A stretch of DNA of 64,000 nucleotides from Lichina pygmaea (taxonomy: Eukaryota > Ascomycota > Lichinomycetes > Lichinales > Lichinaceae): NCBI GenBank assembly GCA_963422465.1, contig OY730169.1:62001-126000 (forward strand). The letters are read 5' to 3'. Below, piece by piece: positions 7,081-43,196 of the stretch. The position numbers and the translations under genes were made by a program. Position 1 is the first letter of the stretch. Each line of letters opens with the position of its first letter. The notes beneath the pieces were generated by a model. That model made no database searches. It was not told the origin of the DNA and saw only the letters and a program-made list of their open reading frames with translations.

Positions 7081-8168
7081 ATGTCTGCAATGAACATGAT
7101 GAGTTTCTCCAGCATCGTCGTCGTCGTGATACTGTTGCTTGTTGCTACGGCGCAAGCCATTGAGCCTTTCTCAAGTCCTATGTCGGCCCGTCCTGGTCGC
7201 TTTGTGACCTCTAGCGGCACGAGCACCGCTTCGTCTTCGTCGCAGTCACCGCTGTTCCCTCCTCACCCGTCATTTAATATGGCACTCAACAGCACGTCAG
7301 TTCTCTCCCAGCTCTCAAGCGCGGGAGAGAAGTACTTCTGGTACATGGTGGCCCAGACCGTCCTGAGCATGGCTGTGATGGCAGTTGCGTACGATCACTT
7401 TTTTGGTTTTAGAATCTCCTCCTGCTTTATCCCAACGACTGTTTATCTACTTCAACTTGGCTATCTTCCTTCTACGTGATATGACTATATACTAAACAAG
7501 TCTTTGTGATTTACAGGGCTCGCTACCGTCAAAATGGCCTCACGGACATTCTTGCAGCCCTCGGAATCCGCTGGCTGGATAGAGAGGGGCATGACGAGGC
7601 TCTGACAAATCTCAGGAACGAGCACGACCAAGCCATGCGGACTCTGAGAGACGAGCATGATCAAGCCATGCGGGCTCAGAGAGACGAGCACGATCAAGCC
7701 ATGCGGCCTCTGAGAGACGAGCACGATCAAGCCATGCGGCCTCTGAGAGACGAGCACGATCAAGCCATGCGGGCTCAGAGAGACGAGCACGATCAAGCCA
7801 TGCGGGCTCGGAGAGACGAGCACGATCAAGCCATGCGGCCTCTGAGAGACGAGCACCAGGAGAACCTGCGGGCCCAGAGACTGCAGTACGAGCAAGACAT
7901 GACGGCCCAGAGAACACAGCACACGCTAGACATGTGTGCCCAGAGAACGGACCACGGGGAACTTGTGCGCCTGCTCAAGGAGGAGCACCAGCGGTTTGTC
8001 TGGAACCTCAAGCACAGCCATGCCAGCGCTCTCCAGAGTCTCGAGAGCAGCAGCGCAAGCGAGCTCGAAAAGCTCCGGGTTAAGCACGGGAAGGACAGAC
8101 GAGGTGACGAAAGGAGGCATAGCCAGGAGGTGAACCGGCTCAAGATGCGGCTCCAGAACGACCCTTGA
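7081..8168 (+). CDS. Membrane-anchored protein with a hendecad-repeat coiled coil
   Basis: Two exons: 7081-7388 and 7517-8168, 319 aa. The donor GTACGA at 7389 and acceptor TTACAG at 7511-7516 flank a perfect ACTAAAC branch site at 7491. A nearer donor at 7476 keeps the same phase but gives a 41-nt intron, shorter than usual. The protein starts with a likely signal peptide (hydrophobic residues 9-26, ending in ATAQA), then a short Ser-rich stretch with an NST glycosylation site, and one membrane segment (about YFWYMVAQTVLSMAVMAVA). The rest is one long charged coiled coil. Its core is seven 11-residue units beginning EHDQAMR (DNA 7620-7850, 33-bp period), followed by three or four decayed units. 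Period 11 is a hendecad, giving a nearly straight coiled coil. I do not recognise a family; a membrane tether or scaffold is only a guess. Confidence 0.6.
7620..7850 (+). repeat. 33-bp coding tandem repeat, seven units
   Basis: Seven units of 33 bp, each coding EHDQAMR followed by T/A/P, L/Q/R, R, D or E. They are nearly identical at the DNA level and differ mostly in the codons for residues 8 and 9. This suggests recent unit gain or homogenisation. Confidence 0.9.
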
Positions 8169-22001: not shown

Positions 22002-22831
22002 CACAGTTATAAGCCTGGAGCTGTTTCCTACCTGCTGCTAAGACACCTGTAACCAGCTTTAAGTTATATTTTCATATAGTATAGGATCTCTGACTGATCA
22101 GAGAGATGTCTCAAAGCTTTTTGACCACAATAATAACCAAAGTCACAACTGTCCTGACTGGAACTGCAGACTGGGATTCTTGGTACACTGTCATCAAGGG
22201 AGTTACTGAAGGAAAGTTGATCTGGGAGTACATTAACCCAGAGACATCTCAGGAACTTTGTCCAACACTCATCCAGTCTGTAAAGCTGGTGCTTGCAGAT
22301 GTTAATACTGATGCACAGGCTTATACTGATCTGACTGTGGCAGAGTGTGATGTGTACAAGTTTCTGACACAGGAGTACAAGTCAGAGAACAACAAGTACA
22401 AAGTTCTGAACACAGCTATCACTGGATACAAGGTAGATATCCTTAGGTTGCTGTCACTGTCAATTCTCTTATACATTCAAAACTGCAAGGGTACATACAA
22501 CACACTTGTCAAGCTACATACATAGTTTGCACCTACAGACAAGACATGGGAGCAGATGGTGCTTGCACAGTATCAGAAAATCAAGAAGGCACCAAGGACA
22601 AAGAATCTTGAGTTGTGGCTGCACAGCTGGGAGAAGATATACCAGGATGCACTGGATATTAGTCTGCCTGATGTTCAGGGCAACTGACCAGTCAAAGATT
22701 TTGTACAAAGCCTGCAGGATACTGACTCTAGATTTCACACATATTGGATACACTATCTTTGTTGTGTCAAGGAGTACCCCTCACTGAAAGAGGTGATCTA
22801 CAAGTTTTGTACACACCTACAAGAGAACCCC

Positions 22832-23275
22832 CCCGGGGCGGCATGGTGTAGCGGGAAGCTGGTGAGAGTTTCCCACTACGTGGCACCCATGACCCGGAAC
22901 TAGTGGTGTCAGGCCTGGAGAACCTGACTAAACTAGTCGTCAGTTCGAATCTGACCCACCCCACATTCTGCCACAAAAACCCCCGAGATTCATAGAACTT
23001 GTCTAAGATGTACTCCTCGCAAGATGTATGAAAACCCTCAAGAAATAGCTCACCCAATATCCGTCAAGATCCACAAAACCCTCATTACTGTGGTTTTCCT
23101 ATTTCCCTACGGGGTTTGGGGTTTTCCCACAGTACGTACACTACAAACCACGGGGTGTACGGTAAATGCGTGAGGTCCCCGAGTCAAGTCTACCAGAGAC
23201 AAAAATCCTTCAAGAAGTTCTGCATGGCTTAACAGCCGAATCAGTGTAAGAATCAAATCAAATCAAATCAAAAAA
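22832..23275 (+). mobile_element. tRNA-derived SINE with a LINE-like 3' tail
   Basis: A 444-bp insertion flanked by ACAAGAGRACCCC (22,819-22,831 and 23,276-23,288, one mismatch). The head is tRNA-like. Acceptor arms GGGGCGG (22,835-22,841) and CCACCCC (22,956-22,962) pair in six of seven positions. A perfect T arm, GTCAG/CTGAC around TTCGAAT, lies at 22,939-22,955. Box A is TGGTGTAGCGGG (22,844) and box B is GTTCGAATC (22,943). The spacing of the boxes is long, so the head holds extra sequence or an intron relic. The body (about 22,965-23,205) is unrelated to anything else here. The last 45 bp before the tail match the 3' end of the family A LINEs, followed by an AAATC repeat tail. It would have been transcribed by RNA polymerase III and moved by LINE enzymes. 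Confidence 0.8.
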
Positions 23276-25086
23276 ACAAGAGGACCCCACATCACAGACT
23301 ACTACACACAGAGTGTTTGCTGCAATGTTCCAGGACCAGACTGCCAGACTGTCTGAAAAGTAATCTGAGAAGAAGGTTGAGAAGCTAGATGTTCCTGCAA
23401 ATGTTCACACAAGTAGTGGTCTGGGCTGTGGCAGAAGAGATCACTGTTCTGAGTGTGTGTGTGGCAAGACATATTGTTTTGTGGACTGTCTGTATGTTGT
23501 CAAGTCAAAACAAGAACACAATTAGGTTCTGAATGAAGAGATTGTTTGTATGTTCTGTGAGAGAGCAGAGCAGAACCCAAAGTTTGTGTACACTATTAAG
23601 AAGGCCTGGAATAGAGGTGGACAGAGTGTGCAACCCTCCTGAGAGCTAAGCAGGAAACACACCAATCATACAGAGGAACCAGCAGATGTCCCTGCATTAT
23701 TTACAGCAGACATCATAGGTGGAGTAGTGTACTTAACAGACATCTCAGGTTATACAGACTACACATTACATGATAGCTTTATCCTTGACTGTGGAGCTAC
23801 AACACATGTCTGCAACAATTGTCAACACTTTTGTACAATCACACCAGCAATTGACCAGCATCTTTACACTGGAGACCAGACTGTCAACATTGTTGGATTT
23901 GGAGCTGTTGACATCACAGTCCAGCTCCCCCAGAGTTGTACAAAGACTGTAACTCTTGGGGACACTGCATATGTCCTGTTATTCCAGACTAACACTGTTT
24001 TGTACAAGCAGTTTGAGAAGGCTGGAGATTATTAGGACACACAGAGTTGTCCCCAGATGCTGATGTACAAGACAACTCTGTACACTATTACAGAGATGTT
24101 GTACAGACAGTACATGGTTGAGCACAACCAGCTAGAAGAATCAACAGATGTTGTATTGTTTGCAACATGATCTGCAGGACTCTGATCACCTGCAATAGCT
24201 CTGTTGAACACCTGGCACCTCTGTGTTGGCCACCTGTATCATGACACACTGGAGAAGCTCCCTCTTATGACTAAGGGGGTGCAGTTCTCTTGTATAAACA
24301 TGCTGCACTGTGAGATATGCAGCCTCACCAAGGCATATCAAATTGTTTCCTGTTGACCAGCAGAGTGTGCTACAGAACCACTTGTGTATGTACACCTGGA
24401 TCTTATCCAGGTTACACCTGTGTACAACAACTATTGTTGGGTGCTGCATTTCCTTGATGATTTTTCCAGGATGAACTTTGTGTATACTCTAGCCACAAAG
24501 TCAGAACTTACAGATGTAGTCAAGCAATTTACAGTGTATGTTAAGAGGTAATACTCTGTACAAGTCTGGAAAATGTGTTGTGATGGAGAACAGAGTCTTG
24601 GGAACAACTTTGTATGATGGGTTGTAGATGAAGGAATTAAGTTTCAGATATCTGCACTGTACACTCCAGAGCAAAACAGAGCTACTGAACAGGGTGATCA
24701 TGGTTAAGGCCTGCACAATTTGGATTGAAGCCAAGCTCCCCAAAGACCTCTGGCCTGAGATTGTACAAACCACTGGCTACCTCACCAACAGATCACCCAG
24801 CAAGAACTTGAACTGGATGACACTGTACAAGAAGCTGCACACTGCACAGCCTGACCTGACATATCTGAAAGTTTTCAGATGTTGTGTATATCTGTACATC
24901 CCAAAAGAGTGTCACCTATGAATAGAGAAGCTGAAGCCTCAAGCCCATATTGGGTATCTTGTAGACTACAACTCCACAAACATTTACCAGGTCTGGATTC
25001 CATCTACAGGTATTGTTATTATTGTATAAGATGTGACTTTTGACAAGAGTACCTGATACAATCTGAACAATGTTCTTACAGACAAC

Positions 25087-28048
25087 TATCCCAACTCTAC
25101 TCTGAACTAGCTACTAAGTTCAAAGAACTCACAGATGATCAAGGACTAGAGCTGGCAATAGCACCTTTCACACCAACAAGAGCAAGAACACTGGCAGAGC
25201 CTCCCTCCTCTACTATTGACTCATCTTTTATTTCTATGTCACTTCTTAATTCCTTTATTTCTTCCCAGATTAACCTAGACTTCCACACAGGTTCAGACCA
25301 CAGACCAGTTCAGACAATCCTAAGTCTGGAAACACCAAAGAAAGCCAGAACCCACCAAAGAAACTGGAGAACACTAGATCTGGACCAAGTCAAGAAAGAA
25401 GCTAAGAATCTTCCCCCTATTCCACCACTACTTAACAGAGAGGAAGTGGACAACTATCTGGAGAACCTGGACAAAGCTCTTCAAGAACTGGCTGACAAGA
25501 CAACAAGACCTCTGAGAGACTCAAAGTACACTGTTCCCTGGTGGAACCAAGAGATTAAAGAGAAAATTAAAGAGGAAAGAAAACTAAGAAGAAAAGTCTT
25601 CCAAAACCAAGAACCAGTCTACAAACTTGAAAAGGTAATAAAGGAAAAGAAACACCTGATCAAGAATACTAAAAGAAAGATATTCAGAGAACAACTCCAG
25701 AACCTGGCTGAAACACAAAAGCACTGGAAAATAGCCAAGTGGGGTAAAGAAAAAGCTGGCAAACCACCAGAACTTCCAATTGTTCCAGAGCTCACAAAGC
25801 AAGATGGAGAAACTGCCAGAACTTTCACAGAAAAGGTAGAAGTATTCAAAACCCAGTTCTTCCCTCTACCTCTCCAGCCAGTACCAGAATCCCAGGACCA
25901 GCCAGCCAACCACCAACAACACCAGCTATCTCAGGAAATCTCCAAAGAAGATATACACAATATTTTGAAAAAGAAAAAACCTTTTACAGCTCCTGGGAAA
26001 GACACTCTACCCAACGGATTTCTAAAGGTATTAGAAGACTCTTTCAATGAAAAGATAGCCAAAGTTCTGGAAGCCTGCTGGAAGCTAGAATATTTCCCTG
26101 ACAGATACAAAGCAGCCAGAACAATATACTTGAGAAAGCCTAGCAAAGGATCCTATTGCTATGCCAAAGCTTGGAGGCCAATAGCACTTCTCAACACAAT
26201 TGGGAAGCTGATGGAAGCTCTGGCAGCCACAAAGCTAAGTGAACTGGCTGAGAAAGAAAACCTGCTACCAGAAATCCAGATGGGCTTCAGAAAAGAAAGA
26301 TCAACTGAGTCTGCACTATTTCTACTCACTTCCCAAGTTGAAAAAGTCTGGAAGGAAGGAATGGTAGCCAGTCTTCTTTCTCTGGATATCTCAGGAGCTT
26401 ATGATAGAGTTCTGCCAGAAATTCTCAAGAAAATCCTGGAGAGAAAAGGAATCCCCAGCTGGTTTGTTAACTGGATCTTTTCTTTCACTACTCAAAGAAA
26501 AACCTCTCTTGTTTTTGATGATTCAGAGTCTTCTTTGTTTCCAGTACACTGTGGAGTCTCTCAAGGTTCACCTCTCTCTCCTATTTTATTTCTTTTCTAT
26601 ATTTCAGATCTTCATAATATTGTTCATACACCAGAGAAAGGTGTATCAGCTCTGGGCTTTGCAGATGACACAAACCTTCTGGCATTTTCCCCTTCTCTTA
26701 AAAGCAATCTCCTGAAGCTAAAGTCTACTCACTCCAAGTGTTTAGACTGGGCAAGAAAACATGGAATGAAGTTTGCACCTGAAAAGTATGAACTTCTCTA
26801 TTTTTCTAGAAGAAGAACAGATAATCTTCAGCTCAGTCTAAGACTTGGAGAAGTGGTACTACAGTCTAAGAAAGAAGTGCGTATTCTGGGACTACACTAT
26901 GATTCCAAGCTTCTCTGGAAAAAACACCAGAAAATCATGTTACAGAAAGCTTCCAAGTTTTTCTCAGCACTTTCCAGAACTACTTTTTCTACATGGGGTC
27001 TACCTGTTCTCTCTGCTAGACTTGTCTACACTGCAATACTGAGATCACTTCTCAGCTATGCAGTAGGAGTCTGGTTCAATCCCCACAAAAAACCTTCTAA
27101 TATTTCTTCTCTAAATCTTTTCCAGACTAAATGTCTAAAAACTATAGGAGGTGTCTTCAAAGCTACTCCTACATTTCTTATTGAAGGAGAACTATTCCTA
27201 CCACCTCTTGATCTTTATTTCAAATTCAGAACAGCAACTTTCCTACAATCTTTCTATTTTTCTAATACTTCTTCTAATCCTCTCTCCTCACTTCTCTATA
27301 AGCTCTTTTCCCAGATCACTGTTTTTGTTTCTACTCTGAGAACACCTCCAAAGTCTGTCTACTGTCACACCTAACTGGAAAGCAAGATGGCTAGAAGAAC
27401 TAATCACTAACCAAGATTACTCTAAGAAACAATTTCAAGAAGTGTTTCAGAAAGAGTGGGAAGCCAGATGGCAGGCAAACAGACAGAAGTGTTCTCCAGT
27501 CTGGGAGCTATTTTGCAGACTACCCCAAAGGAAAAATCTCAAAGTTTTCAAAGACTTGAGAAAAGCTGAAGCTAGTCTTTACTTGCAGATTCTATCAGCA
27601 AGGATAGGACTAGCCAGCTTTCTTTTCAGAGCAAATGTTCCAGACTTCCAATCCCCTCTATGTTCCTGTGGTTTTGGAGAAGAGACTACTCAACATATCA
27701 CTTTCTCTTGTAACAAGTTTCTTACTCAAAGACAGCAAGCCACTTTTCTTTCCTACAATTTCTCTACTTTACTTCAAAAGTCTAAAGTGCTTAAAGAATT
27801 TCTTCTCTGGTTTATGTCTTTGAAAAGACTAGACCAGTTTAACTTAGCACACCAACTCTTACCAGAAAACCTATCATCTCTGTGATTTTATTTTCTCCAG
27901 ACACTGCATATTCTCCCAGATAATTCCCTAGTCTTACCCAAGTCTCAGTTTTTATTCCTCCCAAGGTTTTCTGGGAAAAAAAAGTATGTATCTAGAAGTT
28001 CTGCATGGCTCACCAGCCAAATCAGAGTAAGAATAAAATAAAATAAAA
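25087..28048 (+). mobile_element. LINE family A, 5'-truncated copy (LINE-a)
   Basis: Flanked by TACAGACAAC (25,077-25,086 and 28,049-28,058). It begins inside the endonuclease domain and runs to the family 3' end and an AAATA repeat tail. It keeps the linker, the reverse transcriptase and the C-terminal Cys/His motif. The protein is clearly diverged from LINE-b, so this is an older or separate lineage of the same family. Confidence 0.88.
25236..27885 (+). pseudogene. ORF2 remnant of LINE-a (reverse transcriptase)
   Basis: The main frame runs 25236-27374 and a second frame 27442-27885 continues the protein, so there is one frameshift near 27,365-27,375 besides the 5' truncation. Reverse transcriptase motifs are clear: FRKERSTESALFLL, LSLDISGAYDRV, SQGSPLSPILFLFY and the catalytic GFADDTNLLAF. 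The end has the C-x-C-x8-H-x4-C motif (CSCGFGEETTQHITFSC), usual at the C terminus of Tad/I-type LINE proteins. No RNase H domain is recognisable between the two. Confidence 0.88.
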
Positions 28049-29810
28049 TACAGACAACCAGCTCTGTGAGCACATGGAGAACATTGTGTAATCTATCAGA
28101 ATTAAGCTGACAGACCCCCAGCTTTGTACAACTTTGTCAGGAACAGAGTTTCTTGACACTATGACAGATAAACCTTCTGATGACATGCATGGTGGGGTAG
28201 CCCCACCAACAGCAGAAGGAAATAACAACAGTGTGTACAAAACAGAATCAGTGGATGCACCAACCCCACCATCCAGAGAACCAATGTACCCAGTCTTTCC
28301 AACACTGTCTCCAACCCCTGAGTCTTGTACAAAGTACAACAGAGGACAAGCAGTCATGTACAAAGTCCAGGAGCCTGAACCTGAGATAGCTCCAACACAG
28401 AAGGCCTGCACAACCACAGTGGGTGCAGATCTGGATCTACTCAATATCCTTACCTCTCATACACACTCCAGGTGGTCTGTGTATCTGGCAGACATTAAGA
28501 AACCTCTGCAGATAAATAGTGTTCATGCTGTATTTGCTGCAGGCCAGCAACAGGCATGTCAGAAGCTTCACTGTGATAAGCTTCCACCAGTCCCAAGTAA
28601 TTGGACTAACATACAATCTCACCCTCTTTGTGCAGACTTCATGGATACAGCCACAAAGAAGTATAAGGCTCTTGTATGTTGGGGGGTGTTTCAACCAGTC
28701 AATCACTGGACTACAAGCAGCAAGCCTCTTTCTCTGAAGTGGGTGTTCACATACAAGTTTGATACAGACAGATTCTTGCAGAAGTTCAAGGCATGGATCT
28801 GTGTCTGTGGAGATCTGCAAAGAAAGTTGTTGTATAAAGACAACTATGCAGTGACACTTGCAGCCAAGATGTTTCAGATGCTTATGGCTATCACAGCTGT
28901 GTTTGATCTTGAAGCACACTAATTTGATGTAGTCAGTGCCTTCACAAACAGCAAGTTGGATGAGATAGTGTACTGTGAGTACCCCAAGAGTTTTCACCAA
29001 CCTGGGAAGTGTCTCCTTCTTTTGAGTGTTGTATAGTCTCTGACAATCCCCCCTGCTTTGGCTGCAGGAGTTTTCAGCAATATTGCAGAAGCTACAGCTC
29101 TGTATAGTCCCTGAAGTTGAATGCTTGTTCATGAGCAAGTAGCTTGTGATTTTCTTTTTTGTGGATGATATTGTGGCACTGTTCAAGCCACAGCATCAGA
29201 CAAAATTTGCAGATTTCACAGCCAAGCTGAAGGACAGGTATAAGCTACAGGACCTTGGAGAATTGAAGTGGTTTCTAGGTATCTGTGTTGTCAGGGATTA
29301 TACAGAGAAGAAGAAAAACTCTTCCCAGAACCACGTTCTTCAAGGACCATCATTTTTGACAAACACCACAATTTGTCATATGTTCTGGAAAACAGCCGAG
29401 TTCCTCTCTGAAACCACCCAAACCTTAAGGTGAAACCCCATCACCTTTGAGAATCACACCTGTTTGTCAAAAGTTGTGATCTTGAATCCACGATCTTCTT
29501 CTTCAACAACCAGCAATCTACCCACAACCAGAGAGAGTCTCAGGATAAGAGGAATGGTTAGAGTCTGACTGACTCTGGAGCTAGCAGAGTCTTTGGCTCA
29601 AGGAAAGTCTAGATAGGGGGTCTGGTCCCTAGTCTAGGTTAATACTTCTAGCTTTGCCCAGAGCTTAGTTGGAAAAAGCTGCCCAGGAAAGTCTAGTCTT
29701 GGGGATTGGTCCCAGGACTAGATTATTACTGCTGGGAAACCAGGTGACTCTTCTTTCTGGCAGTACTCTGCAGACAGGAAACACCCAACCAGTGCCAAAC
29801 AATCTCTAAC

Positions 29811-31202
29811 ATGGCTCCCAAGAAGAAAAAACCCACCTTTTCAGAAAGTAACACCAGAGCTACACCAGCTATACTCTCCCAACCAGCTCCCAGTCTGGCT
29901 AGCACCCAGTCCAGCTCTCCTACCCCCCAACCAGCTCCCCAGAGTGACTACAAACTAGTAGACTCCTGGATCAAAACTCAACCAGTCCCAGAATCCATTC
30001 TGAAAAGCTGGGAAAATATCAAAAAGAACTCCTTCCCTACAGAAGCCCAGTCTAGCTCCACTGGCCTCACCAACAGAATCTTCCAGAAGCTGGAGAATAT
30101 CAACAAGCGGCTGGACAAACAAGAAGCCAAGCCATCATATGCCCAGGCTGTCCAAAAATCTATTCCAGCACAAATCCCTCTACCTGCAAGAATTCTCAAA
30201 GAAGTTCTTGTACATCCTGGTATCCAGCCACCTGACATGGCTAATAGAACTCACATCCAGCTTTTCCAGACTCTTCAAGACAGACTACCCAGCCTCTACA
30301 ACAAGCAGGTCAGAGCAGTAAGGAAACTTCCTTCAGGGGATATCCTTATTAACACAGAAAGCCAAGAGACTAAAGTCTTCCTAGAGAAAAACCCTGCCTG
30401 GGTATCAGCTATCTTCACAAAGAAAGCAACCATCCAGCCCAAGAGATTTCCAGTTCTGATCCATGGAGTCAGAACAGAAGATATCCAACCTGAAGACCTG
30501 GAGAAAACCCGCCAGATAATCCAGAACAGCAACCCATCTCTGAGCAAGCAAATCACCATCCTGAGAGCCTACTGGTCTAAGAAAGCTATAGCTCAAAAGA
30601 AGCCAGTTACCTCTCTCCACCTGGATCTGGCTACCCCTGAACAAGCCAATCTTTTGATTGAGAGTGGGCTAGTGCTGGGGCACAGGATGCATGAAGCAGA
30701 ACCTTTTCTGGCAGACACAGTTATTGCACAATGTTTCAAGTGCTTTGGCTATGGGCACCAAGCACACTTCTGCAAGAACAAAGCTGTGTGTGGTGCCTGT
30801 GGAGGCCAGCATGAAAGGAGAGCCTGCCAAGTTCCTGAACAGCTTCTCAAGCCAAAATGCTGCAACTGCAGAGAAGCTCACCCAGCCTGGGCCAGTGTCT
30901 GTCCAGTACGCCAGGAAGCAGCCAAGAAGGCAAGAGAAGCATGGAACACACGCCCAGGAAAATATGAGATCCCAACAGCTACCTCTGTTCCAGCTCTACA
31001 ACCCCCCCCAGTTATGTCTTTCCCTCTCTCTCAGTCTCTACCAGGGGGGAAAAAACATAAAACAGCTGAGCCAAGCAGAAGCTCAGAGAGACTCAGAGGT
31101 GCACTCCCAGAAGTGCAAATTCTTTCTTCAAGATCAGCCAACTCTGGAGGAAAGCTACCAGCTAACTCCTTCAAGATCTTTGATGCTGAGATGTCTGCAT
31201 GA
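29811..31202 (+). CDS. LINE-b ORF1, Gag-like RNA-binding protein
   Basis: 463 aa, uninterrupted. The N terminus is Lys-rich (MAPKKKKP), followed by a Pro/Ser-rich region, a short coiled-coil stretch (IFQKLENINKRLDKQEAK) and an RNA-recognition-like middle. Three Cys/His clusters follow at about residues 307-366: CFKCFGYGHQAHFC, CGACGGQHERRAC and CCNCREAHPAWASVC. These are the retroviral-type knuckles found in LINE ORF1 proteins, which coat the element RNA. Its TGA stop overlaps the ATG of ORF2 in ATGA (31,199-31,202), so ORF2 translation may depend on termination-reinitiation; this is inference from the layout. Confidence 0.9.
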   Translation: MAPKKKKPTFSESNTRATPAILSQPAPSLASTQSSSPTPQPAPQSDYKLVDSWIKTQPVPESILKSWENIKKNSFPTEAQSSSTGLTNRIFQKLENINKRLDKQEAKPSYAQAVQKSIPAQIPLPARILKEVLVHPGIQPPDMANRTHIQLFQTLQDRLPSLYNKQVRAVRKLPSGDILINTESQETKVFLEKNPAWVSAIFTKKATIQPKRFPVLIHGVRTEDIQPEDLEKTRQIIQNSNPSLSKQITILRAYWSKKAIAQKKPVTSLHLDLATPEQANLLIESGLVLGHRMHEAEPFLADTVIAQCFKCFGYGHQAHFCKNKAVCGACGGQHERRACQVPEQLLKPKCCNCREAHPAWASVCPVRQEAAKKAREAWNTRPGKYEIPTATSVPALQPPPVMSFPLSQSLPGGKKHKTAEPSRSSERLRGALPEVQILSSRSANSGGKLPANSFKIFDAEMSA

Positions 31203-34200
31203 AAGACACAAAGCTGACACTTCTCCAGTATAATGTGCAAAAAAGCCAATCAGTCCAAGAGCTACTGCTAGCAACCTCAGCTCTCCAAGAGGTGGACATT
31301 ATTGCACTTCAAGAGCCCTGGAAAAACCCTCACCTAGAAACAAGCACTTCAACTGTTTTCTCTTCCTTTCTTCCTCTCTACTGTTCAGAGATTGGCAGAA
31401 CACTTTTTCTTATTAATAAAAATCTGAAACTCTCTTCTCTTCATCCTACCTTCTGGAATAAAGACTTTGTTTCTCTTGAAATCTACTTGGAAAACTCTTC
31501 TACTTCTCTTTGGGTACATAATCTCTACTTCACCCCATCAAGTCAAGAAAACTACACAGAGGCATCAGAAGCTCTTCTCTGTTTACTCCAAAATACTTTA
31601 CAAGAACAAGGACAACATATTCTTCTCACAGACTCAAATCTTCACCACCCAGACTGGTCAAAGAAAAGAAGACTGTACTCTGAGACTGCAAACAAGTTTC
31701 AAGACCTAATGAAAGATTTAAATCTGGATTTAGCTATTGCACCTTTCACCCCTACCAGAGCAAGATCTCTTTCTGAAAAACCATGTTCTGCTATTGATCT
31801 GTCTTTTATTTCTTCTTCTCTTTCTAACTCTCTGATTTTCTCTAAAGTGGCTCTTCAGTTCTTTCATGGGTCTGACCACAGACCTGTACTAACCTGCCTG
31901 GACCTGGATCCTCCAAGGAAAATCTAGAAACCAGAAAGAAACTGGAGAACACTGGACTCAAACCTTGCAAGAGTAGAGTGTGAGAAGCTACACCTGCCCT
32001 TCCACTTCCAAGACAAATATGAAGTGGATGAGTACTTGGAGTATCTTGACAACTTTCTCCAAGAAATAGCAAGCAAATCCACACAGCTCCAGAAGCAATC
32101 TGGCCACTCAGTTCCCTGGTGGAATCAAGAGATCCAAAACAAGGTTAAAGAGGAAAGAAGAATAAGAAGAAAAGTGCAAAAAAGGCAAGCAAGTCAAGAG
32201 GAACTTGAGCAAGCAACTAAGCTCAAGAAAAAGGCAGTCAGAGATGGAAAACAGAACACTTTCAGACACCAAATCCATGAGCTGGCCAGCTCTTCAAAGT
32301 TCTGGAAGCTTGCAAAGTGGGGAAAGTCCAAAGCCAACAAGACTCCTGATCTTCCTCTGGTTCCTGACCTGGAAACACAAGAAGGAATAGCCAAAACCTT
32401 TGAGGAAAAGACTAAAGCCTTCTCACAGCAGTTCTTTCCAAAAGCTCTAGTTCCAGAACCAGGCTCAGAAAGCTCCCAGACTATCTCTGAGATACAGCTC
32501 TCCCAGGAGGTAACATGTGAAGAAGTGGAGCAAATTCTGGCCAAGAAGAAACCTTTCACAGCAGGAGGGAGAGATAAGCTGCCAAATGGATTTCTGAGAG
32601 CTCTGGGGTCTAGGTTCTGCCAAGCTCTAGCTATTCTGACTTCAACATGCTGGAAACTAGAGTACTTCCCTGAAAGATTTAAGAGTGCAAAAACAGTCTG
32701 CTTGAGGAAACCTGGCAAGGGAACCTACAATCAAGCTAAAGCCTGGCGCCCTATAGCTCTGCTAAACACAACAGGCAAGCTGATGGAAGCTATTGCTGCA
32801 GCCAGACTAAGCAAGATAGCAGAAGAAGCTGGACTATTGCCAGATATCCAGATGGGCTTTAGGAAAGGAAGATCCACAGAAGCAGCACTTTTCCTTCTAA
32901 CCTCCCAAGTGGAAAAAGTCTGGAAGGAAGGCATGGTTGCATCCCTACTCTCACTGGATATCTCAGGAGCCTATGACAGAGTTCTCCCCAAGATACTACA
33001 GCAAATTCTGAAAAGAAAAGGAATACCTGCCTGGCTAGCTTCCTGGATCTACTCCTTCTGTGATAAGTGCTCTACCACTCTTGTCTTTGATGATTCTGAG
33101 TCTTATTCTATTCCTATTCATTGTGGAGTTCCTCAAGGTTCTCCATTATCCCCTATTCTTTTTCTATTCTACATTTCTGAATTGCATGAGACTGTGCATA
33201 CTCCCTCTTCTGGTGTATCTGCCCTGGGGTTTGCAGATGATACAAATCTGCTTGCTTTTGGTCACTCCTTGGAAAGTAACCTTCTGAAGTTAAAGAACAC
33301 ACACCACAAATGTCTATCCTGGGCTGCAAGACATGGAATGGTCTTCTCACCTGAGAAATATGAAATACTTCATTTTTCCAGAAGAAGATCAGACAATCTT
33401 CAGCTCAAGCTCAGACTGGGGAATGTGATTCTCAAACCAAAAGAAGAAGTGCGAGTACTTGGAGTGTACCTAGATGCAAAGCTCCACTGGCACAAACACC
33501 AGAGTATTATTCTTCAAAAAGCACAGAAAGCACTCTCTTCTCTTTCTAGAACTTCCTATTCTACTTGGGGCTTTCCAGTTCACACATCATGTCTGGTGTA
33601 CACTGCTATACTGAGATCTCTACTGAGCTATGCAGTGGGGATCTGGTTTAACCCTCTAAGAAAATCTTCTAATATCTCTTCTCTTGTTTCATTTCAAAAC
33701 AGATGCCTAAGACTTATTGGGGGTGCCTTCAAAGCCACTCCTTCTTTTCTATTAGAGAGTGAGCTTTTTCTTCTACCTCTAGACCTATACTTTAAATTTC
33801 GCACTGCCTGTTTTCTTTCTTCTATTCAAAACTCCCCTCTCAAATACTTTCTTGACAGTATCTTTTCCACTATTTCCAGCTATGCCTCTCTCTTGAAGAA
33901 ACCTTTAAAGGAATCCTCAACTATCTCTCCTAAGTGGAAATTCACTTGGTTAAGTCAAATAACTACTAACCAGGCTAGTTCAAAGAAAGAACTACAAAAG
34001 CTCTTTACTAAAGAGTGGGAAGACCAATGGGAAGAGAAGAAAAGAAGAAGCTATCCAGGCTGGCAGACTTTCTGTCAAAAGCCACACAAAAACAATCTGA
34101 AGCTCTACAAAGAGTTACAGAAAGCTGAGGCAAGTCTGCTACTGCAAATCAGGACTGGAAGAATTGGTCTGGCAAGTTTTCTTTTCAGAGCTGGAGCTCC

Positions 34201-34441
34201 TGACTTCCCTACCCCACTATGTGTGTGTGGCCAAGCAGAAGAAACTGCAAAACATATCACCTCTTCATGCTCTCTTTATTCAAGACAAAGACAACAAGTC
34301 TCTTTTAATCCCCAAGACTTCACCACTATTATTTCAAACCCAGAGCTACTACAGAAGTTCTTGTACTGGTTTATGTCTTTGAAAAGACTAAACCAGTTTA
34401 ATCTAGCTTTCAAACTCCACTATTCCCAATCCAATACCTAG
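31199..34441 (+). pseudogene. LINE-b ORF2: endonuclease and reverse transcriptase with one nonsense codon
   Basis: One frame of 1,080 codons from the ATG overlapping ORF1, broken only by TAG at 31,925-31,927. The endonuclease part (about residues 1-240) shows the APE motifs QYNVQKS, ALQEPW, TDSNLHHPDW and GSDHRPV. The reverse transcriptase (about 440-720) has FRKGRSTEAALF, LSLDISGAYDRV, PQGSPLSPILF and GFADDTNLLAF. The C terminus has CVCGQAEETAKHITSSC. In LINE-c the codon matching the stop is TGG (Trp; seen on the minus strand near 43,170), so the TAG is a private, probably recent, change in this copy. LINE proteins of this kind nick the target and prime cDNA synthesis there. Confidence 0.9.
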
Positions 34442-35482
34442 ATTCTCTTCTCTTACCAGAAACTTCAAGATTCCTTTTGTTACATTCCCTAGTCACACCC
34501 TGCCTTCAGTTTTTATCTCTTCAAAGGTTTTCTGAAGGAGTTCACTATTAGCTAGAAGATCTGCATGGCTGTAAAGCTACTACCAGTGTAAGAATCAAAT
34601 AAATAAAAAAAAATACAGAGAAGAAGCTCTGGTTGAGCCAGGATTCCTATGTGGAGAAGATCACAGCTTTGTTCCATGTAGATGACCAGTCACAGTACCC
34701 CACTACCCTGATAGTGACTGAAAAGCTTGCTGTGTATGACAGGCAAGCTACCAAGACACAAATCTACAAGTATCTGAGGAAGGTTAGATCTCTGCTTTAC
34801 ACAACAATAATCACCAGGCCTGATGTTGCTTGTACAGCAAACAAGCTTGCTGAATCTCTCCTAAACCTGGGGCCACAACATCAAGAAGTAGTCATGCAAG
34901 CTCTTGTGTATATGTACACAACACAGTACTACACAATTGAATTCAGACTGACTGCAGAGTCTCTTCAGACCTTCACCTGCACCAGTGACACAGCTTTCAC
35001 AGACAATATTGAAACACACAAGAGCACAGAGAGATACCTCTTCCAGCTATTCAGTGGTGCAGTTGATTGGTGGTCTACAAAGCAGAAGACTGTCACAACA
35101 TCAAGCACAGAGGCAGAGCTCCTGGCTCTCACAAATATCACAAAGGAATTGTACAGCTGGATACAACTCTTCAAGGCAATCACCTTTGATACTGGGCACC
35201 AGGCCATGATTGATTGTGATAATCAGCAGACCCTTCATCTGCTGATCAAGAACACCCTGCAGCTGAAGACTTGACTTCACCACATCAACATCCATGATAT
35301 GTGGCTCTGTCAGGAAGTGTAAGAGGGATGTCTGTATGTTAATTGGATTCCCACAGACAAGATGCCTGCTGACAGATTAATGAAGGTACTTCCACAGCAG
35401 AAGTATAAGGCCTTTGTCTGGCAGCTAGGATTGGTGGACATCAGGAAGCTTGTCAAGAGCTCAGTGGGACACTGAGAGAGTG

Positions 35483-35806: not shown

Positions 35807-35842
<36 letters not shown>

Positions 35843-36191
35843 ACACTGATAGTAGCTTTACAGCTATGCAGATCTTCTAGCTAATAGTAAAGTCTTTCAG
35901 AAAACCTTTAAAGAAATAAAAACTGAGAGCAGAGTGTGACTAGAAATTGTAACAAAAGAGATCTTGAAGTATCTGGTAGAGAGAAAAGATCTAGGTGTTG
36001 GAGTGGGAATAGTGGAGTTTGAAAGCTAGATTAGACTGATTCAGTTTTTTCAAAAACATAAACCAGTGTAGAAACTTCTGTAGAAGCTCTGGACTTGAAA
36101 TAATCATAGTGAAGTCTTGGGGATTAAAGGAAGCTTGTTGTCTTTGTCTTGAATATAGAGAACATGAAGAGGTAATGTGCTTTGCAGTTTC
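35688..36191 (-). mobile_element. LINE-e, 3' part with an expanded tail
   Basis: About 155 bp of TTTA and TTTC repeats (35,688-35,842) followed, on the minus strand, by the family A 3' UTR and the last part of ORF2. The body is interrupted by the gypsy element at 36,192. The same tail also occurs left of the copia element (21,741-21,793), so the copia went into the tail of this LINE. Confidence 0.85.
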
Positions 36192-36504
36192 TGTCACAGT
36201 TCTGGCCCAGTTGCATATCTGACACAAGTCACACACCTTGCCGGGAAGTTCCATCTGCACTGTTGCCTGTTTGCTAGTCACGCACCTTGCTGGGAAGTTC
36301 CATCTGCACTGTTGCCTGTTTGCTCTGCTGTATCCCCTGCCTATAAGAACTTCTCCTGCTCCCCCAGCTTCTCTTCTTCTTTTCTCTTTTCCTTCCTTGT
36401 CTTTCGTCTTGTACATCAATCCAAGTCTCAAGTCTCAAGCCAAGTCAGGTCAAGGTTACTGAATCAGTTAGACTTGAGTTCTGCTCTGCCATTGCCTTGT
36501 CACA
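36192..36504 (+). repeat. Gypsy 5' LTR
   Basis: Begins TGTCAC and ends GTCACA. It contains a direct repeat of about 46 bp (TCACRCACCTTG...TTGCCTGTTTGCT, twice) that is also in the 3' LTR, and a pyrimidine-rich stretch. Confidence 0.9.
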
Positions 36505-37788
36505 CTACGAAAGACCAACCCAACCATAACACACTTCACCAAGCTACGTTCACGTCCTTGTCATGTCTCAACAACCAGACCAAGCCATGCCAGTTGCTGG
36601 AAATAACAAGTTCCTTCGCAACATGTTTGCAGAGTTCATGTGAATTCAAGCTACTAACACTACTCCCAAGTCCAAGTCTGAACACACTGCTGACCCAGAG
36701 ATCTTCAGTGGCGATGGTGGAAACACAGAAATCATGTATGAGAAGCTTGAGAGCTTCATCATGTCACTGTCACTCAAGATGACACTCAACACTGACTGGT
36801 ACCCCACGGAAACATCACAGATTGCGTACGTCTTTTCACGCACGACTGGCACTGCGCAGTCCTACATCTCAGCTAAGATCACGGCTGGCCAGTACATTGA
36901 CTGGCACAACATTGTCCAAGATCTCCGGAACACCTTCTCTGACCCAGACCCAGAGTTCCTAGCTCAGAGGAAGCTCATCACCTTGTGTCAGGCCAACTGT
37001 TCCTTTGCCAAGTTCTTCACAGAGTTCAATCAGTATACTCCACACACAGGCTTCAACAACAAGGCCTTGAAGTCCCATCTTCAATGTACTGTCTCTGAAG
37101 AGCTTGCCAAGCAGCTTGTCAACATCAACCTCAAGGACATCAGCTATCAGAAGCTTGTTGAGGAATGCCAGCTGCAGGACAACCAGTTGCGTGCCACTTC
37201 TACCAACTCTCACTATCCACATCAAGCACCTCCCACCCAAGCCTCAGTTCCACAGTCAGAGTTCATCAAGCCAGCCTTCACGCCACAACCACCAAGTCCT
37301 ACCATGGATCTCAGCTGCTCTAAGCTGATGCCAGAAGAGCGAGAACATTGCCAAAGTAAAGGCCTCTGCTTCTACTGTGGGAACCAAGGTCATGTCTCAA
37401 CCTTCTGTCCAGTGAAAAGCATGCCTATTGTTACCACCACCACAACCACCACCAAGTCTGCCACTGTTGAGACTACTCCAGAGTCGGAAAACAAGTAGTC
37501 CTTGGTCATCATCGCGCCCAAGGACATGAAAAGGATCTCCATGTTGGCTATCTGTCTCCAGACCAGCAATTAGACAGTAAGTGCTTGTTTCTTCCTTGTA
37601 TCCTAGATGGGAAATTCAAGTGCAATACTCCTATTGACTCTGGCTGTTCAGCATTTGGCTGCATTGGTGCTTTCTTTACATAATCTCTTCACCAAGAACC
37701 TCTCCCCTACCCACGCATATTGCGATTGTTTGATGGCAAGATGTCACAAACCACGCATCTCGCCAAGACAATCATGACCACAGCACAT

Positions 37789-40700
37789 TTTTTATTTTTA
37801 TTTTTATTTTTATTTGATTCTTACACTGGTAGTAGCTTTACAGCCATGCAGATCTTCTAGCTAATAGTGAACTCCTTCAGAAAACCTTTGAAGAGATAAA
37901 AACTGAAGGCAGGGTGTGACTAGGGAATGTAACAAAAGAAATCTTGAAGTTTCTGGTAAGAGAAGAGAATCTAGGTATTGGATTGGGAATAGTGGAGTTT
38001 GAAAGCTAGATTAAACTGGTTTAGTCTTTTCAAAAACATAAACCAGTACAAGAACTTCTGTAGTAGCTCTGGGTTTGAAATAATAGTGGTGAAGTCTTGG
38101 GGATTAAAGGAGACTTGTTGTCTTTGTCTTGAATAAAGAGAGCATGAAGAGGTGATATGTTTTGCAGTTTCTTCTGCTTGGCCACACACACATAGTGGGG
38201 TAGGGAAGTCAGGAACTCCAGCTCTGAAAAGAAAACTTGCCAGACCAATTCTTCCAGTCCTGATTTGCAGTAGCAGACTTACCTCAGCTTTCTGTAACTT
38301 TTTGTAGAGCTTCAGATTGTTTTTATGTGGCTTTTGACAGAAAGTCTGCCAGCCTGGATAGCTCCTTCTTTTCTTCTCTTCCCATTGGTCTTCCCACTCT
38401 TTAGTAAAGAGCTTTTGTAGTTCTTTCTTTGAACTAGCCTGGTTAGTAGTTATTTGACTTAACCAAGTGAATTTCCACTTAGGAGAGATAGTTGAGGATT
38501 CCTTTAAAGGTTTCTTCAAGAGAGAGGCATAGCTGGAAATAGTGGAAAAGATACTGTCAAGAAAGTATTTGAGAGGGGAGTTTTGAATAGAAGAAAGAAA
38601 ACAGGCAGTGCGAAATTTAAAGTAGAGGTCTAGAGGTAGAAGAAAAAGCTCACTCTCTAATAGAAAAGAAGGAGTGGCTTTGAAAGCACCCCCAATAAGT
38701 CTTAGGCATCTGTTTTGAAATGAAACAAGAGAAGAGATATTGGAGGATTTTCTTAGAGGGTTAAACCAGATTCCCACTGCATAGCTCAGTAGAGATCTCA
38801 GTATAGCAGTGTACACCAGACATGATGTGTGAACTGGAAAGCCCCAAGTAGAATAGGAAGTTCTAGAAAGAGAAGAGAGTGCTTTCTGTGCTTTTTGAAG
38901 AATAATACTCTGGTGTTTGTGCCAGTGGAGCTTTGCATCTAGGTACACTCCAAGTACTCGCACTTCTTCTTTTGGTTTGAGAATCACATTCCCCAGTCTG
39001 AGCTTGAGCTGAAGATTGTCTGATCTTCTTCTGGAAAAATGAAGTATTTCATATTTCTCAGGTGAGAAGACCATTCCATGTCTTGCAGCCCAGGATAGAC
39101 ATTTGTGGTGTGTGTTCTTTAACTTCAGAAGGTTACTTTCCAAGGAGTGACCAAAAGCAAGCAGATTTGTATCATCTGCAAACCCCAGGGCAGATACACC
39201 AGAAGAGGGAGTATGCACAGTCTTATGCAATTCAGAAATGTAGAATAGAAAAAGAATAGGGGATAATGGAGAACCTTGAGAAACTCCACAATGAATAGGA
39301 ATAGAACAAGACTCAGAATCATCAAAGACAAGAGTGGTAGAGTGCTTATCACAGAAGGAGTTTTTGATTTGATTCTTACACTGTTTGTAGCTTTACAGCC
39401 ATGCAGATCTTCCAGCTAATAGTGAACTTCTTCAGAAAACCTTTAAAGGAATAAAAACTGAAGACAGGGAGGTGACTAGAAAGTGTAGCAAAAGGAAATC
39501 TTGTAGTGTCTGGTAGGAAAAGCTTCTAGATGTTGGAGTGTGAATAGTGAAGTTTGAAAGCCAGATTAAATTGGTTTAGTCTTTTCAAAGACATAAACCA
39601 GTACAGAAACTTCTGTAGAAGCTCTGGGTTTGAAATAATAGTAGTGAAATCTTGGGGGTTAAAGAGAGCATGTTGTCTTTGACTTGAGTAGAGAGAGCAT
39701 GAAGAGGTGATATACTTTACTGTCTCTTCTGCTTGACCACACATGCATAGGGGGGTAGGAAAGTCAGGGACTCCAGCTCTGAAAAGAAAACTTGCTAGAC
39801 CAATTCTCCCAGTTCTGGTTTGCAGTAGTAGACTTGCCTCAGCTTTCTGTAGCTTTTTGTAGAGCTTTAGGTTGTTGTAGTGAGGTTTTTGGCAAAACAC
39901 CTGCCATCCAGCATAGCCTTTTCTTTTCTTCTCCTCCCATTGGTTTTCCCACTCTTTAGTAAAGAGTATTTGTAGTTCTTTCTTTGAACTAGCCTGGTTA
40001 GTAGTTATTTGACTTAACCAAGTGAACTTCCAATTAGGAGAGATAGTTGAGCATTTCTTTAAAGGTTTCCTCAGTGAAGAAGCATAGGAAGAAATAGTAG
40101 AAAAGGTACTGTCAAGAAAGTCTTTCAGAGAGAAGGTTTGGATAGAAGATAGAAAACAAGCTGTGCGAAATTTAAAATAGAGATCTAGAGGTAAAAGAAA
40201 AAGCTCACTCTCTAATAGAAAAGAAGAAGTGGCTTTGAAAGCACCCCCAATAAGTCTCAGACATTTGTTTTGGAATATGATAAGAGAGGAAATATTAGAG
40301 GATTTTCTGAGTGGGTTGAACCAAATTCCCACTGCATAGCTCAGTACAGATCTGAGTATTGCAGTGTACACAAGGCGTGCTGTGAGAACTGGAAAGCCCC
40401 AGGTGGAGTAAGAGGTTCTAGAAAGAGAAGATAGTGCTTTTTGTGCTTTTTGAAGAATAATTCTCTGGTGTTTGTGCCAGTGGAGTTTGGCATCCAGGTA
40501 CACTCCCAATACTCGCACTTCTTCTTTTGGTTTTAGAATCACATTCCCAAGTCTAAGCTTGAGCTGCAGATTGTCTGATCTTCTTCTGGAAAAATGAAGT
40601 ATTTCATATTTCTCAGGAGAGAAGACTATTCCATGTCTTGCAGCCCAAGATAGATATTTAAGATGTGTATTCTTCAACTTCAGAAGGTTGCTTTTAAGAG

Positions 40701-43196
40701 AGTGTCCAAATGCAAGCAGATTTGTATCATCTGCAAATCCCAGAGCAGAAACACCAGTAGTAGGAGAATGTACAGTCTCATGAAGTTCAGAAATATAGAA
40801 TAGAAAAAGAATAGGAGACAAAGGGGAACCTTGGGGAACTCCACAGTGAATAGGAATAGAAGAGGACTCAGAGTCATCAAAAACTAGGGTGGTGGTACGT
40901 CTGGCCACAGTTGAGCTATGCCGAGGCATAGCGCAGAGTCGACATCCCGTGCAGGGTCTCTGCCACGCTTCCCCGCAGTCCTGAGGTCTTTTGCGCTCCG
41001 CCGTGTACGCTCACCCCTAGGTCCTGCTTCGGAGTGCCGGGTTGCCAGCCCGGAGCCCACGCTCCAACTGCAGTTTGCTCCTTGAGCCCGTCATTTGCAG
41101 CCTGAGCCTGCACTCTGTACGGACCGGCATGCGCTTCCGTCCTCTCGGGCTATATAGACAGTCTCGTAGTAGGCCCAGACCCTACTGCCATCACTGCCAT
41201 TATATGCCATGCCCCGCAGCTCTCGCTGTTTTGTGTTATCTCTGTAGATCTCTCGTACAGAGGCCGACCATGCCTCGCAGACTCTACAGACCCTGCAGGC
41301 CATGCCAGCACCTGCAGGACTGCCTTTCCAGCCCACTAACCAAGTAGGGAGAAGTCTCCGTCTGCCCGCTGTCGCCTGTGGGACCCCAGATGTACGTGGT
41401 GGCCCACTGGAGAACCTCCAGTGCCCTAGCCCCAGTCCGTAGGTAGCCCGAAGAGAATCTGTGGCAAGACCTTAGGCAAAACCATCAAGCCAGCACTTTG
41501 ACTATCACACAGCCCTTAGGTACTGGAGCAGCGGAAACCCTTCATGCCACCTGCTCGCCTTCTTTAACACGTAGTCCCTGTTCGATTAACAACACCGCAG
41601 TACAGACATCACTCCCCTCCTAGAACAAGATCCTCGATGCATCAGCTACTGGAGACTCTGCCAGAAGGGGGGTGTGCGATAGGAACTCCTCTTGTCTACT
41701 CCAGAGGTGCCCTGTCAGATGTCTAGACTTCACCTCCACCAGTTGCAAGGCTGGCTTCAGGCTGTAGCGTACACGGTAGACATCTGTCGGGTGGTTTTCA
41801 TAACCAGTTTGGTTGAAGTCCTCTGTTCTGCTGATGTCACTTCACAGGGGTGTCCAGGGTGCCTGCACGACACCTCCGGTGGCCCGTCACTCCACGGGCA
41901 CCAGCAGCTCGACCGGTGACTCAATTAGCTCTCGGTGCAGCGACTACAAGCAGCTTGGGAGACTGCCTGCCATCGCTGCCCCGAGGTTCCCAGCCTGCAC
42001 CGCGTGGAGGTTTGAGTCTTCGCAGACCATCACAGAAGGAGTAGATCCAGGAAGCTAGCCAGGCAGGTATTCCTTTTCTTTTCAGAATTTGCTGTAGTAT
42101 CTTGGGGAGAGCTCTGTCATAGGCTCCTGAGATATCCAGTGAGAGTAGGGATGCAACTATGCCTTCCTTCCAGACTTTTTCCACTTGGGAGGTTAGGAGG
42201 AAAAGTGCTGCTTCTGTGGATCTTCCTTTCCTAAAGCCCATCTGGATATCTGGCAATAGTCCAGCTTCTTCTGCTATCTTGCTTAGTCTGGCTGCAGCAA
42301 TAGCTTCCATCAGCTTGCCTGTTGTGTTTAGCAGAGCTATAGGGCGCCAGGCTTTAGCTTGATTGTAGGTTCCCTTGCCAGGTTTCCTCAAGCAGACTGT
42401 TTTTGCACTCTTAAATCTTTCAGGGAAGTACTCTAGTTTCCAGCATGTTGAAGTCAGAATAGCTAGAGCTTGGCAGAACCTAGACCCCAGAGCTCTCAGA
42501 AATCCATTTGGCAGCTTATCTCTCCCTCCTGCTGTGAAAGGTTTCTTCTTGGCCAGAATTTGCTCCACTTCTTCACATGTTACCTCCTGGGAGAGCTGTA
42601 TCTCAGAGATAGTCTGGGAGCTTTCTGAGCCTGGTTCTGGAACTAGAGCTTTTGGAAAGAACTACTGTGAGAAGGCTTTAGTCTTTTCCTCAAAGGTTTT
42701 GGCTATTCCTTCTTGTGTTTCCAGGTCAGGAACCAGAGGAAGATCAGGAGTCTTGTTGGCTTTGGACTTTCCCCACTTTGCAAGCTTCCAGAACTTTGAA
42801 GAGCTGGCCAGCTCATGGATTTGGTGTCTGAAAGTGTTCTGTTTTCCATCTCTGACTGCCTTTTTCTTGAGCTTAGTTGCTTGCTCAAGTTCCTCTTGAC
42901 TTGCTTGCCTTTTTTGCACTTTTCTTCTTATTCTTCTTTCCTCTTTAACCTTGTTTTGGATCTCTTGATTCCACCAGGGAACTGAGTGGCCAGATTGCTT
43001 CTGGAGCTGTGTGGATTTGCTTGCTATTTCTTGGAGAAAGTTGTCAAGATACTCCAAGTACTCATCCACTTCATATTTGTCTTGGAAGTGGAAGGGCAGG
43101 TGTAGCTTCTCACACTCTACTCTTGCAAGGTTTGAGTCCAGTGTTCTCCAGTTTCTTTCTGGTTTCCAGATTTTCCTTGGAGGATCCAGGTCCAGG
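37789..43196 (-). mobile_element. LINE family A, 5'-truncated copy (LINE-c), split by LINE-d
   Basis: Flanked by GACYACRGCACAT (37,776-37,788 and 43,197-43,209, two mismatches) in gypsy DNA. On the minus strand it runs from the linker between endonuclease and reverse transcriptase (43,196) to the 3' tail (37,789). LINE-d lies inside it at 39,361-42,028. The ORF2 pieces are 43,069-42,662, 42,568-42,029 and 39,360-37,971. One in-frame TAG near 42,661 replaces a Gln codon that LINE-b keeps. It is very close to LINE-b in sequence, so it belongs to the same young lineage. Confidence 0.88.
39361..42028 (-). mobile_element. Chimeric LINE: family B 5' UTR joined to family A 3' half (LINE-d)
   Basis: Flanked by the identical 13-mer ATCACAGAAGGAG (39,348-39,360 and 42,029-42,041) inside LINE-c, so it inserted as one unit. 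From 42,028 down to about 40,912 it matches the 5' UTR of LINE-f from its exact 5' end. From about 40,905 to 39,361 it is family A: reverse transcriptase from the TTLVFDDSES region on, C-terminal motif, 3' UTR and tail. ORF1, the endonuclease and half of the reverse transcriptase are absent. The remaining frame, 40,929-39,526, is open for 467 codons, including codons from the junction. Confidence 0.85.

What the first reader, a model, noticed from the sequence alone, without database searches (positions are those of the whole stretch)
22832..23275. A tRNA-derived SINE whose 3' end matches the resident LINE family
Seen: a 444-bp insertion with a 13-bp target duplication, a tRNA-like head (perfect T arm, six of seven acceptor pairs, boxes A and B) and a last segment of about 40 bp that agrees with the 3' end of LINE-a at roughly 35 positions, including the TTCTGCATGGCT and TAAGAAT blocks and the AAATC-type tail. 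Known: tail-sharing SINE-LINE pairs, as in eel and some plants, are moved by the LINE's enzyme. Inference: this is a fungal pair of that kind, with a Tad-like LINE as the donor. Fungal SINEs are little described, and such stringent tail recognition in this clade would be new to me.
Basis: partly seen in the sequence, partly recalled or inferred. Interest (0 to 1): 0.82.

Follow-up and report, generated by a model that had tools for sequence, protein, structure and literature searches.

The report
Fungal SINE sharing its LINE's tail
A short non-coding jumping gene in a lichen-type fungus ends in nearly the same ~45 letters as the fungus's long jumping genes, which most likely copy it; the finding is real, but pairs of this kind were already known from a few other fungi.

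Summary
Window 22,835-23,275 is one copy of a large, recently active SINE family. The 40 copies scored (of 680 first-look candidates) are 97-100% identical, and its 3' segment has 144 exact matches. Of 37 distinct insertions held, 35 have exact target duplications of 11-17 bp and begin with the head. The last ~45 nt match the 3' ends of resident endonuclease/reverse-transcriptase LINEs: 39 of 44 positions in the window, far above shuffles. The tail is thus part of the SINE, not a separate LINE fragment. Best explanation: transcription from the tRNA-like head, then copying by a LINE enzyme through the shared tail. SINE insertions have a T|A nick context; only four LINE insertions could be compared.

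The novelty claim fails: tail-sharing SINE/LINE pairs are on record for Magnaporthe, Blumeria and Aspergillus (Tad LINEs in the last two), and so is a stem-loop in fungal Tad pairs. The hairpin here can always pair but is not supported by energy or covariation. Tad membership was not tested by phylogeny. The host is close to Lichina (Lichinomycetes); the paper listings I saw held no such pair there. Verdict: a clean new member of a known kind.

The parts
22819..22831 (+). 5' target site duplication (12 of 13 equal to the 3' copy)
22835..23275 (+). SINE copy (441 bp), preceded by three extra C at 22832-22834
   Evidence: 40 scored copies 97-100% identical in own genome; boundaries from copies
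22835..22841 (+). acceptor-like 5' arm (pairs 6 of 7 with 22956-22962)
22844..22855 (+). A box, TGGTGTAGCGGG
22939..22955 (+). T arm, 5 of 5 pairs, holding the B box GTTCGAATC at 22943
22963..23209 (+). SINE body; outside the best local alignment with the LINE-a 3' end
23210..23257 (+). tail segment shared with LINE 3' ends
   Evidence: 39 of 44 positions equal to LINE-a; 0 of 500 shuffles reach the score
23251..23275 (+). terminal AATC/AAATC repeats and A run
23276..23288 (+). 3' target site duplication
25087..28048 (+). LINE-a, probably 5'-truncated copy; 10-bp duplication 25077-25086 / 28049-28058; shared tail 27999-28034; reverse transcriptase
29314..34612 (+). LINE-b copy between 14-bp exact duplications 29300-29313 / 34613-34626; endonuclease ORF 31190-31924 and RT ORF 31928-34438 separated by one in-frame stop; tail 34559-34596
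   Evidence: 40 scored genomic matches of its 5' end all begin within 12 nt of its first base
37801..39361 (-). LINE-b-type 3' fragment with shared tail
39362..40893 (-). LINE-b2-type 3' fragment with shared tail, abutting the previous one
35809..36192 (-). LINE-b-type 3' fragment, terminal repeats drifted to AAAG/AAAT

Best explanation
This is a tRNA-like SINE that lives on resident LINEs by carrying their 3' end. Inferred steps: RNA polymerase III starts at the A/B-box head and reads through the body, which holds no long T run. The last ~45 nt of the RNA (TTCTGCATGGCT, a 4-nt loop, AGCY, CAG and GTAAGAAT, plus short A-rich repeats) are bound by the LINE protein as if they were LINE RNA. The LINE endonuclease nicks the bottom strand at a site reading (C)T|A on the top strand. 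Reverse transcription is primed there, adds tail repeats, and leaves an 11-17 bp duplication. Shown by sequence: family, duplications, nick context, shared tail, co-resident LINEs with endonuclease and RT. Not shown: transcription, binding, mobilisation.
For: 40 of 40 scored copies (of 680 candidates) at 97-100%, each reaching at least position 431 of 444, so through the tail core; they are the best-scoring ones. 144 exact SINE 3' patterns, 0 in the reversed control. 35 of 37 distinct insertions with exact duplications of 11-17 bp; 35 of those 35 begin with the head. Of 105 distinct tails in held loci, 37 of 37 SINE tails follow SINE sequence and 68 of 68 LINE tails follow LINE sequence. Tail identity 39 of 44, score 57 against a maximum of 32 in 500 shuffles. 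The SINE form with A is equal to LINE-a and LINE-a2 at 41 of 45, to LINE-b at 38 and LINE-c at 40 of 46. T at -1 in 32 of 35 and A at +1 in 29 of 35 SINE insertions. Four LINE insertions (window a and b, L017, L089) have T at -1 in 4 and A at +1 in 3 (read). LINE-b holds PF14529 and PF00078. 2 of 35 SINE copies equal the majority sequence up to the end of the tail core.
Against: The SINE tail equals no LINE subfamily exactly: its loop TAAC is not that of any LINE type compared, and its AAATC ending is not that of LINE-a. The common hairpin pairs in 49 of 49 cells, but 6 of 7 pairs never vary and none changes on both sides; fold z-scores run from -1.64 to +0.36. LINE duplications were found in few copies: 2 of 68 LINE tails and 1 of 25 testable ones, which did not recover that of L017; most loci hold only about 1.5 kb upstream. 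The LINE-a duplication is only 10 bp. tRNA finders do not call the head at default. No expression data.
Confidence: 0.9

Rival explanations
1. The partner is not LINE-a but LINE-b/c, or any LINE with this 3' end: several LINE subfamilies share one recognisable tail and the SINE uses whichever is active.
For: All seven tail types compared keep TCTGCATGGCT, AGC, CAG and GTAAGAAT. The GTAAGAATCAAAT ending of the SINE is that of LINE-b/c, not LINE-a. A pattern taking in LINE-b/c tails has 455 exact matches against 200 for LINE-a/a2 (the two patterns differ in strictness).
Against: The AAATCAG segment and the T of GTTCTGC are of LINE-a/a2 type; overall 41 of 45 against 38 and 40 of 46, a small margin.
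Confidence: 0.4
2. The tail is a relic: the SINE arose by template switching between a tRNA-like RNA and a LINE RNA, and is now recognised only by its A-rich end (relaxed recognition).
For: Template-switch chimeras are described for Magnaporthe LINEs (PMC2104539, passages). The hairpin is not supported by energy or covariation.
Against: 35 alignment columns are invariant over the seven tail types. LINE-a and LINE-b agree at 35 of 46 tail positions, against 67% over 3 kb, only a modest excess. The 40 scored SINE copies all keep the tail, but they are the best-scoring ones; the 37 copies were found by the tail and say nothing here.
Confidence: 0.15
3. Not a SINE: an unrelated insertion followed by an independent truncated LINE insertion, or a chance resemblance.
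For: Only the 2 of 37 insertions without an exact duplication (L058 and the window copy itself), the latter having one with a single mismatch.
Against: 35 of 37 insertions have one duplication around head, body and tail. Loop variants do not mix between SINE and LINE-a/a2 among the first places listed (parts of 200 and 144). Shuffles stay far below the observed score.
Confidence: 0.01

Closest known systems
Mg-SINE with the LINE MGL/MGR583 (Magnaporthe); PMC3747384 Table 1 and PMC2104539, passages seen
   Same: tRNA-promoter SINE in a filamentous ascomycete, 3' end like that of a resident LINE, mobilisation by mimicry proposed.
   Different: Different host; sequences were not compared here (no copy of Mg-SINE was fetched).
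SINE2-1_BG with Tad1-24_BG (Blumeria); PMC3747384 Table 1, row seen
   Same: tRNA-promoter SINE with a Tad1 LINE tail in an ascomycete.
   Different: Sequences not compared.
AfuSINE2-1a with the Tad LINE I-1_AF (Aspergillus fumigatus); PMC5063351, passages seen
   Same: tRNA-related head, 3' part like the 3' UTR of a Tad LINE, target duplications in the family, short terminal repeats.
   Different: Low copy number and a shared part of about 125 nt there; here 144 exact 3' matches and about 45 nt.
Stringent-type SINE/LINE pairs in general (eel, tobacco TS); PMC3747384 section 1.4 read
   Same: Common tail thought to recruit the LINE enzyme.
   Different: That paper cites experiments for eel; I have none for this pair.

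Membership tests
tRNA-derived SINE | short, dispersed element in many copies | tested here: met
   40 scored copies of 680 candidates, 97-100% identical; 35 measured copies 432-457 bp
tRNA-derived SINE | target site duplications around the whole unit | tested here: met
   35 of 37 distinct insertions, 11-17 bp
tRNA-derived SINE | A and B boxes and tRNA-like arms in the head | tested here: met
   A box, T arm 5/5, acceptor 6/7; 0 of 20,000 shuffles; criteria set after seeing the element
tRNA-derived SINE | head recognised as, or traceable to, a particular tRNA | tested here: inconclusive
   ARAGORN default and Rfam negative; no convincing parent among 20 of the 37 tRNA hits
tRNA-derived SINE | polymerase III transcription | not testable with these tools
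   no RNA data
tail-sharing (stringent-type) SINE/LINE pair | 3' end of the SINE homologous to that of a resident LINE | tested here: met
   39 of 44; score 57 against a maximum of 32 in 500 shuffles
tail-sharing (stringent-type) SINE/LINE pair | same insertion signature for SINE and LINE | tested here: inconclusive
   strong T|A context in 35 SINEs; only four LINE insertions measured; 24 of 25 testable LINE copies gave none
tail-sharing (stringent-type) SINE/LINE pair | conserved 3' stem-loop | tested here: inconclusive
   49 of 49 cells pair, but 6 of 7 pairs never vary and no compensatory change; z -1.64 to +0.36
tail-sharing (stringent-type) SINE/LINE pair | LINE protein needs the tail for retrotransposition | not testable with these tools
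   needs an assay
Tad-clade LINE | APE-type endonuclease plus RT | tested here: met
   PF14529 and PF00078 in LINE-b
Tad-clade LINE | groups with Tad elements in an RT tree | not tested
   no reference labelled Tad at hand; most hits unnamed, a few from Histoplasma, Lachnellula, Podosphaera

The most novel reading that the evidence does not exclude
The SINE head descends from an unspliced, intron-bearing pre-tRNA. In this genome 30 of 37 tRNA hits span at least 89 nt (coordinates), and the A-to-B-box distance of the SINE (99 nt) falls within the 61-116 nt of 18 measurable tRNAs (the fetched ones were mostly picked for length). One shared 3' tail would then make the SINE a common parasite of several LINE subfamilies at once.
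Probability: 0.2. Interest if true: 0.5.

Novelty: new member of a known kind. Interest (0 to 1): 0.3.

Why it matters
It adds a clean, high-copy and recently active SINE/LINE tail-sharing pair in a fungus near Lichina. The only search naming Lichinomycetes found four papers, none about transposable elements of that class by title and abstract start. With hundreds of LINE tails of several subfamilies and a SINE with its own tail variant in one 32.5-Mb genome, it is a good natural data set for what a fungal LINE protein needs to see in an RNA 3' end.

Tried and rejected
Separate truncated LINE insertion at the 3' end: rejected. Chance resemblance: rejected. Third tail-bearing family: none among 105 distinct tails in held loci, but the loci were brought in by these families, so the sample is biased. 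Parent tRNA: alignments of the head with 20 fetched tRNAs gave no convincing parent; the other 17 hits were not fetched; an ARAGORN run with lowered threshold on the 20 gave thousands of spurious calls and was not used. On the head itself the lowered threshold proposes a serine tRNA with a 48-nt intron in another acceptor register, and one on the opposite strand, so it was not used. Stem changes: a search for tails whose first stem letter is not G gave 85 places, letters shown for 48; nearly all are a G>A change, which still pairs where the partner is U and is broken where it is C; none is a clear two-sided change. More LINE duplications: BLAST-guided search of 25 testable copies gave one, L089, already.

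Full report
What was checked. The window lies in a 32.5-Mb genome of eight contigs, seven of them 3.2-5.8 Mb. A mitochondrial ribosomal protein gene in the window is 85% identical to that of Lichina confinis, the next named hit being 45%, so the host is an ascomycete close to Lichina (Lichinomycetes). No related genome is held, so other species could not be searched.

The element. Window 22,835-23,275 (441 bp) starts GGGGCGGCATGG and ends in AATC/AAATC repeats and an A run. It is preceded by three extra C and flanked by 13-bp repeats equal at 12 positions. In the same genome 40 copies were scored out of 680 first-look candidates, 97-100% identical and reaching at least position 431 of the 444-base query. 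A SINE-specific 35-letter 3' pattern has 144 exact matches and none in the reversed control. Among 37 distinct SINE insertions in the loci held, found by their tail, 35 have exact target duplications of 11-17 bp, and those 35 begin with the head. The two without are L058 and the window copy, which has its single mismatch. One copy, L014, measures 440 bases to the end of the tail core instead of 414-422. Two of the 35 copies equal the majority sequence up to the end of the tail core and the most diverged differs by 4.8%. 29 of the 35 were brought in as best matches; the six others differ by 1.9-4.8%. The family was therefore active recently.

The nick context is strong: T before the duplication in 32 of 35 and A as its first base in 29 of 35, with CT at the last two places in 20.

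The head. A perfect A box, a T arm with five pairs and an acceptor with six of seven pairs occur together once in both strands of the 64-kb window and in none of 20,000 shuffles of the element; the criteria were fixed after seeing the element. Against this, ARAGORN at default threshold and Rfam see no tRNA. The best RNA fold, better than 200 of 200 shuffles, keeps acceptor and T arm but replaces the D and anticodon arms by a long hairpin. The distance from A to B box is 99 nt. In this genome 30 of 37 tRNA hits span at least 89 nt (coordinates). Twenty were fetched, mostly the longer ones; in 18 of them the A-to-B distance could be measured and is 61-116 nt. The head could thus come from an intron-bearing pre-tRNA, but no parent was found among the 20. 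Runs of T reach 4 in 33 of 35 copies and 5 in 2. From recall, fungal polymerase III usually needs longer runs to stop, so read-through to the tail is plausible.

The tail. The last ~45 nt agree with the 3' end of the LINE at 25,087-28,048 (LINE-a) at 39 of 44 positions; further upstream agreement falls to 8 of 17. The local alignment score is 57, against a maximum of 32 in 500 shuffles. In the genome, 200 exact LINE-a/a2-type tails and 455 exact matches to a pattern that takes in LINE-b and LINE-c were counted; at least one listed match of the latter is a SINE with an extra A. Among the first places listed, SINE tails have the loop TAAC or one-letter variants and LINE-a/a2 tails have CACC, CTAC or CTAT; they do not mix. 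In held loci 37 of 37 SINE tails follow SINE sequence and 68 of 68 LINE tails follow LINE sequence. Together with the duplications around head and tail this refutes a separate truncated LINE.

The LINEs. LINE-b in the window, 29,314-34,612, lies between exact 14-bp duplications, and 40 scored genomic matches of its 5' end, of 348 candidates, begin within 12 nt of its first base. It codes for an APE-type endonuclease and an RT in one frame broken by a stop. LINE-a is a probably 5'-truncated copy with a 10-bp duplication. The two are about 67% identical over 3 kb; their tails agree at 35 of 46 positions, and 35 columns are invariant over seven tail types. Four LINE insertions could be measured (window a and b, L017, L089). 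All have T before the duplication and three have A as first base, like the SINE. Four is few: one search found only 2 among 68 LINE tails (the window copies fell there under fetched loci with less upstream sequence, as duplicates), and one search found 1 of 25 testable copies and missed that of L017, since most loci hold only about 1.5 kb upstream. Protein searches list mostly unnamed relatives, the named ones including Histoplasma, Lachnellula and Podosphaera. Tad membership was not tested by a tree.

Structure. A hairpin CUG...GGCU-4 nt-AGCY...CAG can form in all seven tail types (49 of 49 cells). But six of its seven pairs never vary, one varies on one side only, and no pair changes on both sides. 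Fold z-scores run from -1.64 to +0.36. The stem-loop is possible, not shown.

Mechanism. The best-supported reading is retropositional parasitism: polymerase III transcript, recognition of the common tail by a LINE protein, nick at (C)T|A, target-primed reverse transcription, tail repeats and target duplication. Sequence shows the family, the duplications, the nick context and the shared tail. Transcription, recognition and mobilisation are inferred. Which LINE subfamily is the partner is open: the SINE tail is closest to LINE-a and LINE-a2 (41 of 45) by a small margin over LINE-c (40 of 46), and its last letters are those of LINE-b/c.

Novelty. PMC3747384 (section 1.4 and Table 1 rows seen) reports 58 such SINEs; the rows seen under Fungi are two (Magnaporthe, Blumeria). 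PMC2104539 (passages) and PMC5063351 (passages) describe fungal cases. PMC5135761 (passages) states that stem-loops were found for Tad1 pairs in fungi. The finding is therefore a new member of a known kind. Listings seen: 10 of 10 papers, 9 of 9, 2 of 2, 18 of 18, 15 of 26, 12 of 2,824, 12 of 100 (lichen), 8 of 19 and 4 of 4 (Lichinomycetes). No listed title or abstract start describes a SINE/LINE pair in Lichinomycetes. Subscription journals and Repbase were not searched, so an unpublished or database entry for this family is possible.

Noticed in passing
G000 tRNA hits, L091-L110: 30 of 37 RF00005 hits span at least 89 nt, as if most nuclear tRNA genes carried introns; 62 of 631 candidates were scored, so 37 is a lower bound.
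   Followed up: partly
SINE copies in L002-L087: 132 of 177 differences from the majority are C>T or G>A; of 131 with known neighbour 78 are in CpG and 17 in CpA, although CpA sites are about twice as many (58 against 30): unlike RIP at CpA as I recall it.
   Followed up: partly
37801-40893: Two LINE-b-type 3' fragments lie head to tail, the second starting right behind the tail of the first, perhaps a tandem or template-switch product.
   Followed up: no
22400-25080: The sequence around the SINE looks like a decayed LTR retrotransposon, Copia-like from recall (Pol_BBD above cut-off at 23643-24032; SH3_retrovirus at 24628-24918 below cut-off), so the SINE seems nested in it.
   Followed up: partly
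42949-44334 and 36734-37495: Other retroelement pieces in the same island of lower G+C (22-48 kb): an RT on the + strand and a gag-like ORF below cut-off.
   Followed up: no
7548-7976: Tandem array with 33-bp spacing, nine overlapping 165-nt copies in register.
   Followed up: no
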